Assembly (NCBI RefSeq): GCF_009938015.1
Contig: NZ_AP021884.1
Span: forward strand, 1,909,501-1,973,500
From: Sulfuriferula plumbiphila
GTDB lineage: Bacteria; Pseudomonadota; Gammaproteobacteria; Burkholderiales; Sulfuriferulaceae
Direction: 5' to 3'
Length of the DNA stretch: 64,000 nucleotides
Position numbers and translations under genes: made by a program. Shown here in pieces: positions 58,776-64,000 of this stretch. The notes below the pieces were generated by a model. It was not told the origin of the DNA. It made no database searches and saw only the letters and a list, made by a program, of their open reading frames with translations. The first letter of the stretch is position 1, and each line of letters starts with the position of its first letter.

Positions 58776-59140
58776 GGGGGCGACCTGGCTTCGACGTGGG
58801 TTGCAAAGCAGAGCAGGGCATACCGAGGACGGACTACCTCGTAAATACAATCCGAAATCGTTTAACTGCAAACGACGAAACTTACGCTCTGGCCGCTTAA
58901 TTGCGCCAGACCCTACACCAGCTAGCATACGAGGTGGGCCGGGCAACCGGCAGTAGGGTAATTTCAGTATGATCGCCTTGTCCAGGGTTGCTTTGGACAA
59001 GGTTAAAACCAAGGCAACTCGCTGGCTTCCAGCCTGTTCGGTGGGCGTGAAGCAGGTTAAAACCAAATTACCGGACTAAGTATGTAGAACTGTCTGTAGA
59101 GGGCTTGCGGACGGGGGTTCGATTCCCCCCGCCTCCACCA
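58776..59140 (+). ncRNA. ssrA: Transfer-messenger RNA (tmRNA)
   Basis: tmRNA rescues stalled ribosomes and tags the unfinished protein. The 365-base gene begins GGGGGCGACCTGGCTTCGAC and ends with the T-arm GGTTCGATTCC, the acceptor strand CGCCTCC and ACCA, which pair with the 5' end. The tag frame starts at GCA 58868 and encodes ANDETYALAA with TAA at 58898-58900. ClpXP, which degrades tagged proteins, is encoded at 26-28 kb. Accessory DNA begins shortly behind its own terminator. Confidence 0.97.
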
Positions 59141-59148
59141 TAATGTGA

Positions 59149-59181
59149 AATCCCAACCCTTATCCGGTTGGGATTTTTTTT
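59149..59181 (+). terminator. Rho-independent terminator of ssrA
   Basis: AATCCCAACC and GGTTGGGATT pair perfectly over ten bases around a seven-base loop, followed by a run of eight T residues. It starts nine bases after the tmRNA CCA end. Confidence 0.92.
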
Positions 59182-59216
59182 GCCCGTTCCCCCAGTGTTG
59201 GCGCGGTTTTCGAGCT

Positions 59217-59334
59217 TGACCTCTTGAGCGCACCCCGGCCGAAGTCGCCGTTTCCGTCGTGCATTCCACCGTTTTTCTCTCTCTGTTCTCTGCTGACCTC
59301 TTGACCGTGCAAGTGCCGAAGTCCGCTGTTTTCG
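59217..59334. repeat. Imperfect direct repeat of about 40 bases beside ssrA
   Basis: Copy A (59217-59256) and copy B (59294-59334) share TGACCTCTTGA at their start, GCCGAAGTC in the middle and a TTTYCG end. They lie in the 232-base non-coding gap between the ssrA terminator and merR. Behind them an imperfect hairpin (about 59350-59403, CGGTTGC and GCAACCG as outer arms) follows merR on the minus strand. The repeats may be recombinase sites or remnants of an element end. Confidence 0.55.
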
Positions 59335-59413: not shown

Positions 59414-59821
59414 TCACGCCGCCTGCAACGCCGCAATCAGCGGACACTGCACTTCCCCGCTCGCGGCGCAGCAGCGCTCGACGAGACCCTGCAGCGCACC
59501 CTCAATCCTTTTCAGATCGGCAAGCCGAGCGCGCACATCCGTGAGCTTGCGCTCGGCCTGCTCGCGGGCCTCGTTGCAATGCGACCCGTCCTCGAGCTTC
59601 AGCAAGTCCGCGATCTCGTCGAGGCTGAACCCCAGACGCTGAGCGGACTTGATGAAGCGCACGCGCGCCAGATCCGCCTCGCCGTAGCGGCGGATGCCGC
59701 CCAGCGGGCGGTCGGGCTCCTGCATCAAACCCTTGCGCTGGTAGAAGCGGATCGTTTCGACGTTGACCCCGGCGGCCTCGGCCAGGACGCCAATGGTCAG
59801 GGTTTCGGGTAGTTCGTTCAT
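59414..59821 (-). CDS. merR: Mercury-responsive regulator MerR
   Basis: MerR represses and, with Hg(II), activates the mer promoter by twisting DNA. From ATG 59821 the protein has 135 residues. The helix-turn-helix reads [20 protein letters not shown] with the following wing [20 protein letters not shown]. The three mercury-binding cysteines are present: in [12 protein letters not shown] and in [15 protein letters not shown]. It is divergent from merT across a 42-base gap holding the operator. Confidence 0.95.
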
Positions 59822-59826
59822 GGCAC

Positions 59827-59857
59827 TTGACTCCGTACTTAAGTACGGAAGTAAGCT
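59827..59857 (+). promoter_or_regulatory. mer operator-promoter
   Basis: TTGACT (59827-59832) and TAAGCT (59852-59857) are separated by 19 bases, the overlong spacer typical for MerR-controlled promoters. Between them lies the palindrome CCGTACTTAAGTACGG (59833-59848), the MerR site. The merT ATG follows only six bases after the -10 box, so a transcript would start at or next to the start codon. Confidence 0.92.
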
Positions 59858-59863
59858 TACGCC

Positions 59864-60235
59864 ATGAAACCAGATTCCCCAACTGAATCTCGAACCAGCG
59901 GTGGGCATGGCGCGCTACTGACCGGCGGTCTAGCCGCCATCCTCGCTTCTACCTGCTGCCTCGGCCCCTTGGTGCTGATCACGCTGGGTGTCTCCGGCGC
60001 GTGGATCAGCAACCTGACCCTGCTCGAACCGTATCAGCCCTTCTTCACCGGTGCGGCGTTCGTGGCACTGTTTTTCGCGTACCGGCGCATCTGGCGACCC
60101 GTTGCTGCCTGTGAGCCCGGGCAGGTCTGCGCGCTGCCACAGGTCAACCGCAGTTACAAGGCGTTGTTCTGGGTCGTGGTTGCGCTGGTCATCGCTGCGC
60201 TCGGATTCCCGCTGATCGCGCCCTGGTTTTACTAA
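59864..60235 (+). CDS. merT: Mercuric transport protein MerT
   Basis: MerT is the inner-membrane protein that takes Hg(II) from MerP into the cytoplasm. The 123-residue protein has three membrane helices, the Cys pair in [17 protein letters not shown] in helix one, and the cytoplasmic pair in [11 protein letters not shown]. It is about seven residues longer at the N-terminus than the 116-residue Tn501/Tn21 form. No leader with a ribosome-binding site fits between promoter and ATG. Confidence 0.95.
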
Positions 60236-60247
60236 AAGGAAACTGCC

Positions 60248-60532
60248 ATGAGAAAACTCGTTGCCCTGGCGGCGTTGGCCGCGATGACCTCGCCCGTCTG
60301 GGCTGCCACGCAGAGCGTCACGCTGTCCGTGCCGGGCATGAACTGCGCCACTTGCCCGATCACGGTCAAGAAAGCGCTGACCAAGGTCTCCGGCGTCAGC
60401 AAGATCGACGTGAGCCTGGATCGACGTGAGGCCAAGGTCACGTTCGATGATGCGAAGGCGAACGTCGAGGCCCTCACACGCGCCACCAAGGACGCAGGTT
60501 TTCCGTCCACTTTGGCGGAAGCCGCCAAATGA
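60248..60532 (+). CDS. merP: Periplasmic mercury-binding protein MerP
   Basis: A 94-residue periplasmic metal-binding protein. A signal peptide (MRKLVALAALAAMTSPVWA) precedes a heavy-metal-associated domain with the binding motif GMNCATC. AAAAGGAA lies before the ATG. It passes Hg(II) to MerT. The stop overlaps the next start by four bases. Confidence 0.95.
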   Translation: MRKLVALAALAAMTSPVWAATQSVTLSVPGMNCATCPITVKKALTKVSGVSKIDVSLDRREAKVTFDDAKANVEALTRATKDAGFPSTLAEAAK

Positions 60533-60750
60533 CTGCGGTGATCCTGGAATCGACGCTGACCTGTCCCGAGTGCGGCCACGCCAAGACCGAGACGATGCCG
60601 ACAGACGCCTGCCAGTGGTTCTACGATTGTGAGCAGTGTCACGCCGTTCTCAAGCCCAAGCCGGGTGACTGCTGTGTGTACTGCTCCTACGGCACAGTGC
60701 CCTGCCCGCCGATTCAGGAGCGTGGCAAGGGCGGTTGCTGCGGTAGCTAA
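60529..60750 (+). CDS. GDCCVxC-domain small cysteine-rich protein
   Basis: A 73-residue protein with 11 cysteines: TCPECGHAK, FYDCEQCHAVL, the signature GDCCVYCSYGTVPCPPIQ and a C-terminal GGCCGS. This is the GDCCVxC family, some members of which carry selenocysteine; here all positions are cysteine and no in-frame TGA is used. The family is often next to mer genes. I infer metal binding or metal hand-over; function unknown. It overlaps merP by four bases and its stop abuts, without a gap, the stop of the convergent gene. Confidence 0.85.
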   Translation: MTAVILESTLTCPECGHAKTETMPTDACQWFYDCEQCHAVLKPKPGDCCVYCSYGTVPCPPIQERGKGGCCGS

Positions 60751-61227
60751 TTACGCGAGTCGCAGCCGCTCACGCTGCTCGTCCCACCGCTGGGGAATGG
60801 CACGACGGCTGACGCTTTCCAATGTCACGCCGGCAGCCGCACCGGTTGCGCAGGCTTCAACGATGCTGGGTGCCAACTGTGCCAATCGGGCGATCCGACT
60901 GGCACGACCCAAATCGAAGCCTTCAGCTTCAGCGATCTCAGTGATCGATGCGAAGCGCCCTTCGTCCATCAACCTTTGCCAGTGATGCGCGAGGCCGAGC
61001 GCACGCATCAAAGGCGTGTCCTGCGCGGCCGCCTTCATCAATCGCTCGCGGCGAGCCTCGTTCTGGAACTCCTGCGGCGCATCCAGCGGCGTGATGACCT
61101 GCTTCTTCAGGCCCCGGCGTACGAGCGTCCAGGGCAGGAAGGTTTCCATCTGCACGCCGCCAGCGAGCAGCGGCGTCTGATACGTCACAGGGTCGCCCTT
61201 GGCGTGGCCGCGATGCTTCTTGCTCAT
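60751..61227 (-). CDS. Recombinase-associated helix-turn-helix protein, paralogue B
   Basis: A 158-residue protein, METFLPWTLVRRGLKKQVI in its first third. The C-terminal part (WQRLMDEGRFASITEIAEAE, RIARLAQLAPSIVEA, TLESVSRRAIPQRWDEQRER) looks like a ParB/KorB-style helix-turn-helix and matches, from memory, the C-terminal end of many large serine recombinases. It is a paralogue of the gene just upstream. The ATG at 61227 overlaps that gene's stop by four bases. It is the last gene of the recombinase operon. Confidence 0.65.
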   Translation of the reverse strand: MSKKHRGHAKGDPVTYQTPLLAGGVQMETFLPWTLVRRGLKKQVITPLDAPQEFQNEARRERLMKAAAQDTPLMRALGLAHHWQRLMDEGRFASITEIAEAEGFDLGRASRIARLAQLAPSIVEACATGAAAGVTLESVSRRAIPQRWDEQRERLRLA

Positions 61228-61595
61228 ACGTCCTCCTCGAAGGTGGCCATGAGCTGGCGCTGGGCGTGCCAGTCGACCGTCAGGCGGTTTCGCTGAAACC
61301 AAATCAGCGTCAGCCGCCGTGGCTGCTTGCCCGCCATGAACTGCTCAATGATGTCGGGGGCCAGCAGGGTCAGGCGCAGCAGTTCGTTGACCACCGAGTG
61401 GTGCAGCTTCTCGGCGCGGGCGATGGCGGAACCGCTCTGCATCGCGCCGGTGTCCAGCAGGTGCTGCCAGTAGAAGGCGCGTGCCACACCGTCGAGCAGT
61501 GTCACGTCGTGGACGTGCCGGTCGTCGGCAGCCACGCGTTGGACGCCTCGGCGGCGAAACGTCAGGGGCACGAAGGTTTCCATCGACTCGTCCAT
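61224..61595 (-). CDS. Recombinase-associated helix-turn-helix protein, paralogue A
   Basis: A 123-residue protein that aligns along its length with paralogue B: METFVPLTFRRRGVQRV, then YWQHLLDTGAMQSGSAIARA, ELLRLTLLAPDIIEQFMAG, LTLIWFQRNRLTVDWHAQRQ. The second half is the same helix-turn-helix module. Start and recombinase stop share a base (TGATG), a sign of translational coupling. A role as DNA-binding or directionality partner of the recombinase is my inference. Confidence 0.65.
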   Translation of the reverse strand: MDESMETFVPLTFRRRGVQRVAADDRHVHDVTLLDGVARAFYWQHLLDTGAMQSGSAIARAEKLHHSVVNELLRLTLLAPDIIEQFMAGKQPRRLTLIWFQRNRLTVDWHAQRQLMATFEEDV

Positions 61596-62983
61596 CAGGC
61601 TTCGACCTCCAGCAGTTCGGCACCGATGCTGTCCGGGGCGAACTCCTTGATCAGCGCGTTCCAACCCACCTCACGCCACTTCACCTTGATCCCCTGCACC
61701 TCGCCCGCGTGGACGAGATCGATGCGCTCGATCATCAGATTGGCGATGCGGTGGCGCTCGACTGGGAACAGTTGATCCCACACGTTGTTGAGCCGTCCCA
61801 TGGCCATCACGGTCGTGGCCTCGTCGATCTGTGCCCCGTTGCGTTGGATGTGCCGCACCACCGACGCCACAGTTTCCGGGCTGGTCAGCACCGTGCGGAT
61901 CTGGGCCACCACCGCCCCCTCGATCTCCAGCGCAGGCAGGCGCTCGTAGCCCTTGCCCGGCGCGCCGAACCGCGCTTCCGACTTGGACACGTAGTAGTGG
62001 TACTTGCGCCCGTTCTTGCGCGAGTAGGTCGGGTACATCCGTTCGCCCGAGGGCGCGTACAGCAGACCGCGCAGCAACGCGTCAGTGCGCGACCTGATCT
62101 TGGTCTCGACCGACCGAGTGTGACCGTCCTTGGCCAGCACCTCGTGAACCCGGCCCCACAGCCCGGGATCGATGATGGCTTGATGCACTCCCGGGTACCA
62201 ACTGCCCTTGTGCGACAACTCCCCGAGGTAGATGCGGTTGCGCAGCAGCTTGTGCAGGTACTTCTTGTCGATGCGCGTGCCCGCCCGCGTCTGGCCGTCC
62301 TGTGTCGTCCACGCCTTGGTCGTGATGCCATCGAGCGTCAGGTTGGCGGCAATCTGGGTGGGCGAGCCGATGGTCAGCATCTCCTCAAAGATGCGCCGCA
62401 CCACCGCCGCCTCGGTGTCGTTGATGACCAGCAGACGGTTCTCGACGTCGAAGCCGAGCGGCGGCACGCCACCCATCCACATCCCTTTGCGCTTGCTGGC
62501 GGCGATCTTGTCGCGGATGCGCTCGCCGGTGACCTCGCGCTCAAACTGGGCGAAGGACAGCAGCACGTTGAGCATCAGCCGCCCCATCGAGGTGGTGGTG
62601 TTGAACTGCTGCGTGACCGACACGAACGACACGCCGTGGCGCTCAAACACCTCAACCATCTTGGAGAAGTCGGCAAGGCTGCGCGTCAGGCGGTCAATCT
62701 TGTAGACCACTACGATGTCGATCTGGCCGCGCTCGATGTCGGCCATCAGGCGTTTCAGCCCGGGCCGATCCGTGTTGCCGCCGGAGAAGCCGGGATCGTC
62801 GTAGTCGTCGGCCACCGGAATCCATCCTTCTGCGCGTTGGCTGGCGACGTAGGCTTGGCCAGCCTCCTTCTGCGCGTCGATGGAGTTGAACTCCTGGTCA
62901 AGGCGTTCGTCCGACGACACCCGGCAGTAGACGGCGCAGCGTTTGCGCGCCTTGGGAGAGGCGATGTGGGTGGCGTCGCTCAT
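61595..62983 (-). CDS. Large serine recombinase (resolvase/invertase family)
   Basis: A 462-residue site-specific recombinase. The N-terminal catalytic domain has the nucleophile Ser in RCAVYCRVSSDERLDQEF, VVVYKIDRLTRSLADFSKMV and SFAQFEREVTGERIRDKI. A recombinase domain follows (GGVPPLGFDVENRLLVINDT to about residue 300), with KKYLHKLLRNRIYLGEL. No cysteine zinc ribbon is seen. The usual C-terminal helix-turn-helix module of close relatives seems to be missing here and encoded separately downstream. ATG 62983 overlaps the DUF2924 stop by four bases. Confidence 0.9.
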   Translation of the reverse strand: MSDATHIASPKARKRCAVYCRVSSDERLDQEFNSIDAQKEAGQAYVASQRAEGWIPVADDYDDPGFSGGNTDRPGLKRLMADIERGQIDIVVVYKIDRLTRSLADFSKMVEVFERHGVSFVSVTQQFNTTTSMGRLMLNVLLSFAQFEREVTGERIRDKIAASKRKGMWMGGVPPLGFDVENRLLVINDTEAAVVRRIFEEMLTIGSPTQIAANLTLDGITTKAWTTQDGQTRAGTRIDKKYLHKLLRNRIYLGELSHKGSWYPGVHQAIIDPGLWGRVHEVLAKDGHTRSVETKIRSRTDALLRGLLYAPSGERMYPTYSRKNGRKYHYYVSKSEARFGAPGKGYERLPALEIEGAVVAQIRTVLTSPETVASVVRHIQRNGAQIDEATTVMAMGRLNNVWDQLFPVERHRIANLMIERIDLVHAGEVQGIKVKWREVGWNALIKEFAPDSIGAELLEVEA

Positions 62984-63432
62984 TGCGCACCTGCCTTGCC
63001 GGTCAGGCCGAAGAACAGTGGCCCCGACCAGTGCGTGCCCGTGATCTGCCGGGCCACGGCTGTCAGGCTCTTGAAGGTGCTGCCCTCGTACTCGAACAGA
63101 CCTTCGGCGGTGACCGCCACCTTGTGCTCGCGGTCGCCCCATTCGCGCAGCAGCACGGTGCCGGGCGCGAAGTTGGTGTCGCGCGGGCGAGCCCGCAGCT
63201 TGATCTTGGAATGCTTGGCACCGATGGCCTCCAGGCGCTGGCGCGTGTTGTGCGCCAGACCGCCGAAGGCTTCCTCCTGCATCTTGTAGGCGATGCGCGA
63301 CTCGATGAAGACGCGGTTGGGGTTGATGGGGCGGCTGCTGAAGTACCGATCCCACACTGGCCACAACTCGGCGATGGGCAGGCTCGACAGCTCCGCGATC
63401 CGCGCGGCGACGGATGCTTGTTTCTCGTTCAT
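62980..63432 (-). CDS. DUF2924 protein
   Basis: A 150-residue DUF2924 protein: RIAELSSLPIAELWPVWDRY, FIESRIAYKMQEEAFGGLAH, PGTVLLREWGDREHKVAVTA and TGTHWSGPLFFGL. The family is found next to serine recombinases in phages and integrative elements; its function is unknown, possibly DNA binding. The ATG at 63432 shares a base with the preceding stop (TGATG), better supported than the GTG one codon upstream. Confidence 0.85.
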   Translation of the reverse strand: MNEKQASVAARIAELSSLPIAELWPVWDRYFSSRPINPNRVFIESRIAYKMQEEAFGGLAHNTRQRLEAIGAKHSKIKLRARPRDTNFAPGTVLLREWGDREHKVAVTAEGLFEYEGSTFKSLTAVARQITGTHWSGPLFFGLTGKAGAQ

Positions 63433-63623
63433 CACAACTTCTCCGTTTGATAGGGGGTTGTATGAACGCGCTGGTCGGGCAGGAAGCCAAGGCCAACTTC
63501 TCTCTGTTTTGGCGCTTCTGCGACGACTGTGCGGACGATGGCGGCCGCAAGGATGGCGGTGATTTCACCAGCGCGGGCGCTAGCGGACATCTCCGAGGGA
63601 GATGCGAGTTCGAGGTTCTTCAT
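63432..63623 (-). CDS. Small ORF heading the recombinase operon
   Basis: A 63-residue product beginning MKNLELASPSEMSASARAGE and ending FLPDQRVHTTPYQTEKL. GGAG lies seven bases before the ATG at 63623. The stop overlaps the DUF2924 start by one base, the same coupling as elsewhere in this operon, which argues that it is translated. A central helix EITAILAAAIVRTVV resembles small conserved proteins in the same place of other elements (from memory). Function unknown. Confidence 0.6.
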   Translation of the reverse strand: MKNLELASPSEMSASARAGEITAILAAAIVRTVVAEAPKQREVGLGFLPDQRVHTTPYQTEKL

Positions 63624-63850: not shown

Positions 63851-64000
63851 ATGGCATTTGGTGCCTACATCAGACAGAAGAGGGAGGCGAAGGGCATTCA
63901 GATGAATGACTTCGCCCGGCAGCTGGAAATCTCGCCTGCCTACTGGTCGCGCATAGAGCGCGACATCGAGAAGCCGCCCAAGGACGAGCTGATCCGCAAG
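63851..64000 (+). CDS. XRE-family transcriptional regulator (3' end outside window)
   Basis: The first 50 residues of a Cro/CI-type regulator are present: MAFGAYIRQKREAKGIQMND followed by FARQLEISPAYWSRIERDIE, a complete helix-turn-helix. The gene is cut by the window edge. Divergent from the recombinase operon, it is placed as the element's repressor; similar N-termini occur in regulators paired with ImmA/IrrE proteases, which cannot be tested here. Confidence 0.85.
   Translation, partial: MAFGAYIRQKREAKGIQMNDFARQLEISPAYWSRIERDIEKPPKDELIRK

What the first reader, a model, noticed from the sequence alone, without database searches (positions are those of the whole stretch)
61224..63623. Serine recombinase operon with its C-terminal DNA-binding module split into two tandem paralogous genes
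Seen: five minus-strand genes (63-residue ORF, DUF2924, recombinase, paralogue A, paralogue B) joined by TGATG or ATGA overlaps at 63432, 62980-62983, 61595 and 61224-61227. Paralogues A and B align with each other (METF[LV]P at the start, then a helix-turn-helix region ending in an LT...W..QR pattern). From memory, the same module ends many large serine recombinases, but the 462-residue recombinase here stops before it. Inference: the recombinase works as a multi-protein machine whose target choice or direction is set by the detached, duplicated modules plus DUF2924.
Basis: partly seen in the sequence, partly recalled or inferred. Interest (0 to 1): 0.7.

Follow-up and report, generated by a model that had tools for sequence, protein, structure and literature searches.

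The report
Phage integrase with separate target-choosing subunit
This is the integration operon of a prophage inserted at the end of a small-RNA gene; its DNA-cutting enzyme keeps its tail-end DNA-binding part as separate small proteins, and in relatives one of those small proteins changes together with which RNA gene the phage inserts into.

Summary
The five overlapping genes are real: the integration operon of a prophage inserted at the 3' CCACCA of ssrA (58776-59140). Phage AcaML1 has the same five genes, two annotated 'recombinase large/small subunit', and is published as integrated in ssrA (PMC3826726, passages). A and B are one family. Of 291 related loci (not deduplicated), the module is fused to the recombinase in 72, one separate gene in 145, two in 41; 33 show none. 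A resembles the ParB/Noc DNA-binding domain (Foldseek E only 0.2). New here: in 32 distinct two-module operons (24 ssrA, 8 tRNA-Phe), A tracks the target beyond the recombinase's own relatedness (partial Mantel 0.80, p 0.0005; nearest neighbour 32 of 32); B and DUF2924 show no such extra link. I read A as a target-selecting subunit, exchanged between recombinases. Limits: three supported independent switches; no gain over the recombinase in single-module relatives; 11 of 43 distinct junctions fit neither RNA gene nor attP, including loci with AcaML1's own A; no experiment. A new variant of large serine integrases.

The parts
58776..59140 (+). ssrA (tmRNA) gene used as integration site; its last six bases CCACCA (59135-59140) are the junction core
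   Evidence: ARAGORN; junction comparison; in 54 of 54 loci with an element-end hit (two-module, truncated and later-fetched loci) CCACCA precedes the element end
59141..59250 (+). left end of the element (attL, phage-derived half) with its own terminator hairpin
   Evidence: 13 element ends aligned for a profile: 12 follow ssrA or tRNA-Phe, the 13th is the start of the AcaML1 record
59414..60750 (.). cargo between element end and integrase operon: merR (-), merT, merP, GDCCVxC protein (+)
   Evidence: Pfam/NCBIfam; not between ssrA and B in G059
60751..61227 (-). protein B, 158 aa, second copy of the module
   Evidence: phrog_14161 3.4e-36; 39 B copies form one clade, support 99
61224..61595 (-). 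protein A, 123 aa, ParB-like HTH module; proposed target-selecting subunit
   Evidence: phrog_14161 1.9e-39; AF2 mean pLDDT 86; Foldseek Noc/ParB; tracks target
61595..62983 (-). large serine recombinase (integrase) R, 462 aa, without the C-terminal module and without zinc-ribbon cysteines
62980..63435 (-). DUF2924 protein D, co-conserved with R
   Evidence: PF11149 4.5e-51; detected in 245 of 258 loci with a module
63432..63623 (-). 63-aa ORF S, first gene of the operon
   Evidence: homologues in AcaML1 (76% identical) and G059
63851..64000 (+). start of a divergent regulator-like ORF of the prophage, cut by the window end (XRE type is my reading of the sequence)
   Evidence: ORF; similar ORF in G059

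Best explanation
The operon encodes a multi-protein phage integrase. R is a large serine integrase that joins phage DNA to the 3' CCACCA end of tmRNA or tRNA genes (junctions shown; the chemistry is inferred from family membership). In an ancestor the C-terminal ParB-like HTH module was part of R; one gene separation gave a co-translated small subunit, and one later duplication gave A and B (tree; polarity inferred). A binds the RNA-gene half of attB and/or its look-alike in attP, joins R on the site, and so decides whether the phage enters ssrA or tRNA-Phe (inferred from co-variation and apparent natural exchange of A). B and DUF2924 are accessory or directionality factors (inferred, role open).
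For: Module: separate in one clade of R (support 92) and fused to R's C-terminus in the sister clade (88) and in WO-type proteins. Integration: CCACCA precedes the element end in 43 of 43 distinct junctions, 30 of which are ssrA or tRNA-Phe ends. In 80 genome loci, 39 had an RNA gene in the held flanks and 39 of 40 RNA-gene calls face the operon with their 3' end (L083 has two overlapping calls, so 38 of 39 distinct). AcaML1 has no PF00589 match in its whole record and G000 none inside the element, yet AcaML1 is integrated in ssrA (PMC3826726, passages). Fold: A's best solved neighbours are Noc, Spo0J, ParB and SopB. Target: identity Phe-Phe, tm-tm, Phe-tm is 0.81, 0.72, 0.50 for A against 0.90, 0.88, 0.86 for R and 0.81, 0.64, 0.62 for B; partial Mantel of A given R 0.80, p 0.0005, of B given R -0.002, of DUF2924 given R -0.21. 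R of L174 (Phe) and L165 (ssrA) is slightly nearer the Phe group in both (0.88 v 0.85; 0.90 v 0.86), but A fits each one's own target (0.77 v 0.49 Phe; 0.72 v 0.48 ssrA). Fewest label changes: R 4, A 1, B 2. Of 19 loci fetched with a Phe-type A, 8 had a readable junction, all tRNA-Phe (three from contigs seen before); of 43 fetched with the window's A, 9 were ssrA and none tRNA-Phe. Fourteen A columns separate the groups, among them residues 65, 67 and 70 of A (66, 68, 71 in that call's count), at the start of model helix 66-77, the second HTH helix in my reading.
Against: Only 3 supported independent target switches; the sign test cannot reach 0.05, and the Mantel permutations ignore phylogeny. 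In 39 single-module loci the module predicts the target no better than R. 11 of 43 distinct junctions fit neither ssrA, tRNA-Phe nor the attP look-alike (two of them have an ssrA-like tail); L081, L082 and L173, among these, carry an A identical over the aligned stretch to that of AcaML1, so an ssrA-type A does not always mean ssrA, unless these are arms of neighbouring elements. L084 and L181 use ssrA though their A is nearer a Phe-type reference (L079) than the window's A. The first ~25 residues of B co-vary too, so the exchanged block is larger than A. A patch in R co-varies partly, with L165 as an exception. L162's label rests on a short ssrA tail. Foldseek E for A is only 0.2. No contact of A with R was modelled. 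In 41 of 80 genome loci no RNA gene lay in the held flanks.
Confidence: 0.57

Rival explanations
1. A and B are recombination directionality factors or excision regulators, and the link of A with the target is hitch-hiking of a recombined DNA block.
For: Serine integrases work with small directionality factors (recalled); an RDF-bound serine integrase is solved (SPbeta, 9dxd, listed). The exchanged block includes the first ~25 codons of B.
Against: The module is part of the recombinase polypeptide in 72 loci, which suits a constitutive domain. B lies between A and the att end, yet most of B does not track the target, so simple linkage to att is a poor explanation.
Confidence: 0.2
2. A and B are transcription regulators or immunity proteins of the phage that happen to sit in the operon.
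For: HTH-like fold; a plasmid homologue is annotated as LacI-family regulator.
Against: Position directly after R, C-terminal fusions to R, and co-occurrence with R in alpha-, beta- and gammaproteobacterial records.
Confidence: 0.08
3. Target choice is set by R itself (a catalytic-domain patch or the zinc-ribbon-like domain) and A merely co-evolves.
For: R windows at about residues 104-149 correlate with target, r 0.69 and 0.62; nearest neighbours by R are right for 29 of 32.
Against: L165 has the Phe-type patch but uses ssrA; no R column separates the groups, while 14 A columns do; partial Mantel of R given A is negative.
Confidence: 0.13

Closest known systems
Acidithiobacillus phage AcaML1 (JX507079; PMC3826726, passages seen)
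   Same: same five-gene order; R 85%, A 71%, B 45%, D 81%, S 76% identical over aligned codons; integrated in ssrA; no PF00589 match
   Different: the record names only large and small subunits and leaves B, D and S hypothetical; the ten paper searches listed in the full report showed no link of a subunit with target choice
Large serine integrases (TP901-1, Bxb1, SPbeta, A118, phiC31)
   Same: resolvase, recombinase and zinc-ribbon-like domains
   Different: the module profile matched no recombinase chain of the PDB at E up to 10, only Spo0J and a ribonucleotide reductase; zinc-ribbon cysteines are missing here
Wolbachia phage WO recombinase
   Same: the module is fused at the C-terminus (residues 364-475, E 3e-23); a DUF2924 gene directly upstream of a recombinase is reported in a Wolbachia wStri study (PMC10299305, passages)
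   Different: single polypeptide; the WO-type L357 keeps zinc-ribbon cysteines
Dehalococcoides ssrA genomic islands (DsiB/DsiA, PMC3146451, passages)
   Same: serine recombinase with smaller partner genes at ssrA, one partner with a ParBc domain
   Different: CcrB-type integrase; DsiA has a catalytic domain; DUF2924 does not occur in the text; homology of the partners was not tested here
AcaML1-like prophages of Methylococcus (PMC12924245, passages)
   Same: prophages reported at ssrA and tRNA-Phe, AcaML1 named as closest reference phage for one group
   Different: not connected with a recombinase subunit in the passages seen

Membership tests
Large serine recombinases / integrases | N-terminal resolvase catalytic domain followed by Recombinase domain | tested here: met
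   PF00239 2.4e-42, PF07508 1.1e-11
Large serine recombinases / integrases | zinc-ribbon domain with cysteine ligands | tested here: not met
   PF13408 match below cut-off; no cysteine in these columns in the window's protein and in 39 of 40 two-module proteins. The two core domains still place it in the superfamily; the claim is 'variant', not 'typical member'.
Large serine recombinases / integrases | site-specific integration of a mobile element | tested here: met
   junction mapping; no recombination assay
phrog_14161 'recombinase' module | profile match | tested here: met
   A 1.9e-39, B 3.4e-36
ParB/Noc/Spo0J DNA-binding proteins | HTH DNA-binding domain fold | tested here: inconclusive
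   Foldseek's best hits are Noc/ParB/Spo0J, prob up to 0.99 but best E 0.2; profile to Spo0J E 0.077
ParB/Noc/Spo0J DNA-binding proteins | N-terminal ParBc domain | tested here: not met
   no Pfam ParBc match in A or B at E up to 1
Recombination directionality factors | switches integrase from integration to excision | not testable with these tools
   needs an assay
DUF2924 (PF11149) | profile match above cut-off | tested here: met
   173 bits, cut-off 31.2
Dehalococcoides DsiB ssrA-islands | CcrB-type integrase overlapping attL with a catalytic DsiA partner | tested here: not met
   R matches the CcrB model at 123 bits, cut-off 900; R does not overlap attL and no other operon protein has a resolvase domain

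The most novel reading that the evidence does not exclude
A family of serine integrases works with a detachable, exchangeable DNA-binding subunit that chooses the integration gene, much as HsdS chooses the site for type I restriction enzymes (recalled comparison): phages move between ssrA and tRNA-Phe by acquiring another A gene (about 0.4 kb) while keeping their recombinase.
Probability: 0.47. Interest if true: 0.82.

Novelty: new variant of a known kind. Interest (0 to 1): 0.63.

Why it matters
How large serine integrases recognise att sites, and how they could be retargeted, is a long-standing question, because recognition is thought to lie in one polypeptide (recalled). Here nature seems to have put part of it into a separate, exchangeable protein, so target choice could be tested by leaving genes out or comparing natural operons. 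The family also lies at many tRNA and tmRNA gene ends, which the Islander paper said serine integrases were not known to do for tRNA genes (PMC4383910, passages). For ssrA a published precedent is Dehalococcoides (PMC3146451, passages).

Tried and rejected
Rejected: a chance ORF cluster (order conserved). Rejected: a tyrosine integrase as the real integrase (no PF00589 in AcaML1 or inside G000's element). Rejected: A and B as decayed copies (purifying selection). A duplicated ssrA end was looked for by exact repeats of 13 bases or more and not found; the right end instead carries a T-arm look-alike shared with AcaML1.

Negative or weak: the module did not beat R as target predictor in 39 single-module loci, out of 41 with a facing RNA gene. 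No Pfam or NCBIfam match above cut-off for A, B or S. VIA-align was not available. G886, found with a Phe-type A (80% identical, one TAG inside), has R in two frames and an element end with no RNA gene found, so it is unresolved; G1030, found with the window's A (97%), lies at tmRNA as predicted; G957 and G895 gave no element end or RNA gene. L337 and L352 count as 'one' but sit in the fused clade, perhaps frameshifts.

Rows dropped: for the 32-operon test, loci without exactly two modules, with R under 430 residues, or whose junction did not fit the ssrA or tRNA-Phe pattern were left out (AcaML1 was labelled from its paper), and 38 labelled loci became 32 after removing identical operons. L078 failed the pattern; L384 (tRNA-Phe) had a partial R. 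An earlier run had a wrong tRNA-Phe pattern and found no Phe loci. The earlier 19-locus table used hand labels. The 291-locus survey was not deduplicated, came partly from capped 'best 80' lists, and was drawn with both split and fused queries, so its proportions are not frequencies in nature.
Full report
OBSERVATION. The five minus-strand genes exist as described, with TGATG or ATGA overlaps. Going downstream they are S (63 aa), D (DUF2924), R (462-aa recombinase), A (123 aa) and B (158 aa). B ends at 60751, outside the finding's interval. Pfam identifies R as Resolvase plus Recombinase with a sub-threshold zinc-ribbon match, and D as DUF2924; A, B and S have no Pfam match above cut-off. PHROGs put A and B in one family, phrog_14161, described as 'recombinase'.

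WHERE IT LIES. The window is G000:C1:1909501-1973500. The operon is the left end of a prophage: terminase-, tail- and lysozyme-like genes follow to the right beyond the window (my reading of the translations). ARAGORN finds ssrA at 58776-59140. In G059, whose R is 91% identical, the operon lies directly beside ssrA without the mercury genes. Comparing elements shows that the element begins right after the CCACCA of ssrA or tRNA-Phe and brings its own terminator-like hairpin. An element-end profile had a usable hit in 54 two-module, truncated or later-fetched loci; all 54 (43 distinct junctions) have CCACCA just before it. Of the 43 distinct junctions, 22 fit the ssrA pattern, 8 tRNA-Phe, 2 the attP look-alike and 11 none of these, L078 and L422 among them with an ssrA-like tail. 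The right end in G000 is at about 2045697, where a T-arm look-alike and upstream bases resemble the end of the AcaML1 record; that record begins and ends with the same ten bases CCACCATTTA. So the element is about 77 kb, followed in tandem by a second element with its own D-R-module operon.

PUBLISHED RELATIVE. Phage AcaML1 has the same five genes, with R and A annotated as recombinase large and small subunit. A later paper calls it an inducible temperate phage integrated in the tmRNA gene, lists 10-base repeats, and tested element borders and sites by PCR (PMC3826726, passages). The 2012 genome note is not held. The AcaML1 record has no PF00589 match, nor has G000 inside the element, so the serine recombinase is the likely integrase in both. 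Another serine recombinase-like ORF lies at G000 2041127-2042692 (my reading) and cannot be excluded for G000 alone.

SURVEY. Scans with an alignment of 11 recombinases gave the best 80 genome and 80 viral loci (both lists capped); three fused proteins as queries led to 90 more viral loci. Classifying 291 loci, not deduplicated: 145 have one separate module, 41 two, 72 have the module fused to the C-terminus of R, 28 have none but end too soon, 5 have none. DUF2924 was detected in 245 of the 258 with a module (69 of 72 fused, 136 of 145, 40 of 41). In a draw of 398 genomes of the window's phylum, 99 have a module match. On a FastTree of 281 R sequences the separate-module loci form one clade (support 92), the main fused group another (88), which also holds L337 and L352 scored as 'one'; WO-type fused proteins lie outside under midpoint rooting; the two-module loci except L245 form one clade (99), which also holds two single-module loci (L176 and L184, cut by their contig ends). 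Of the modules, 39 B form one clade (99); 39 of 41 A form one clade (99) with two single-module entries, while L088 A and L245 A lie elsewhere. I infer one separation and one duplication; the direction of the first depends on the root.

WHAT THE MODULE IS. AlphaFold2 of A gives mean pLDDT 86, with a low-confidence first 30 residues holding a short hairpin and then a confident helical domain. Foldseek's best solved neighbours are Noc, Spo0J, ParB and SopB, probability up to 0.99 but E no better than 0.2; a profile search gave Spo0J at E 0.077. A fused recombinase (L266, pLDDT 82, pTM 0.42) resembles Bxb1, SPbeta and phiC31 integrases. No zinc-ribbon cysteine is left in 39 of 40 two-module, 83 of 141 one-module and 26 of 70 fused proteins, so the loss is not tied to the separation.

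RNA GENE ENDS AS TARGETS. Of the 80 genome loci (1.35 Mb), 39 have an RNA gene in the held sequence and 41 have none. ARAGORN made 40 calls; 39 face the operon with their 3' end (15 tmRNA, 9 Ser, 7 Ala, 4 Phe, 2 Met, 1 Thr, 1 Lys), one does not. L083 has two overlapping tmRNA calls, so 38 of 39 distinct. With even odds 39 of 40 has p about 4e-11, though related loci are not independent. [quoted passage not shown] a Dehalococcoides paper had already proposed ssrA-specific serine integrases (PMC3146451, passages), and AcaML1-like prophages at ssrA and tRNA-Phe are listed in PMC12924245 (passages). Ten paper searches (listings, with passages of some papers) showed no paper tying a separate subunit to integration-site choice; most subscription papers are absent from that library.

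TARGET AND MODULE A. L174 and L165 gave the clue: R of both is slightly nearer the Phe group, while A matches the group with the same target. More loci were then fetched by A-type and R queries. Of 19 loci fetched with a Phe-type A, 8 had a readable junction, all tRNA-Phe, three of them on contigs seen before; of 43 fetched with the window's A, 9 were ssrA, none tRNA-Phe, 6 had other ends and 28 none. Of 38 labelled loci, 32 distinct operons remained: 24 ssrA, 8 tRNA-Phe. Mean identities within Phe, within ssrA and between: R 0.899, 0.879, 0.861; A 0.809, 0.722, 0.495; B 0.808, 0.635, 0.622. Partial Mantel with target: A given R 0.796 (p 0.0005), B given R -0.002 (p 0.48), R given A -0.48 (p 1.0), R given B 0.14 (p 0.08). 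Nearest-neighbour target prediction: A 32, R 29, B 31 of 32; with neighbours limited to R identity under 0.90, A 30, R 20, B 21 of 32. Fewest label changes: R 4, A 1, B 2 (all). DUF2924, found in 31 of 32, gives -0.21 given R. Windows show the signal across A and the first ~25 residues of B, plus a patch in R at about residues 104-149 that L165 contradicts. Fourteen A columns separate the groups, among them residues 65, 67 and 70 (one search counts them 66, 68, 71), at the start of helix 66-77 of the model. B lies between A and the att end, so plain linkage to att is a poor explanation.

LIMITS. On the R tree only three supported independent pairs differ in target; A goes the same way in the three, but the sign test cannot be significant. 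In 39 single-module loci with a repeated target type, nearest neighbours by module were right 18 times and by R 23 times (21 v 21, 17 v 19, 13 v 19 at stricter settings). L084 and L181 use ssrA though their A is nearer the Phe reference L079 than the window's A. L081, L082 and L173 have AcaML1's A over the aligned stretch but ends that fit no RNA gene; they may be arms of neighbouring elements or other sites. Two further genomes gave one agreement (G1030) and one unresolved decayed copy (G886). Polarity, physical contact of A with R, and the roles of B, D and S remain inference.

VERDICT. A real, conserved, partly published operon; the detached-module idea is right but general to a clade, and the most interesting part is the evidence that A chooses the target. 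New variant of a known kind.

Noticed in passing
window 59414-60750: A short mercury operon (merR, merT, merP, GDCCVxC protein) sits between the element end and B. The same slot holds MerR plus a cation-efflux protein in L077 (similar ORFs in L087), Thoeris ThsA/ThsB in L165 and a toxin-antitoxin-like pair in L084 (my reading): a cargo slot beside the integrase.
   Followed up: partly
G000:C1:2018374-2032318 (L009, L010), right of the window: The same 77-kb element carries a BREX-type defence set: BrxA, PglZ, BrxHI, BrxC, BrxF.
   Followed up: partly
G000:C1:2045697-2050604 (L011): A second D-R-module element in tandem at the right end, 59% identical in R, beside a short ORF that looks like a truncated P4-type tyrosine integrase (my reading).
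   Followed up: partly
G000:C1:2045665-2045697; AcaML1 record end (L075): The phage arm at the right end imitates a tRNA T-arm ending in CCACCA, so attP and attB look alike on one side.
   Followed up: partly
window recombinase, about residues 104-149: A cluster of linked substitutions in the catalytic domain marks the tRNA-Phe users L079, L080, L171, L172 and L174 plus L165, suggesting recombination inside R as well.
   Followed up: partly
L081, L082, L159, L166, L173, L387, L389, L433: Element ends preceded by CCACCA but by no recognisable RNA gene; three share a GTCAACC(G/A)TCC(G/A)CCACCA stretch (L081, L159, L166), perhaps another att type.
   Followed up: no
L245: A second, weaker module hit after the first in a distant relative may be an independent duplication.
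   Followed up: no
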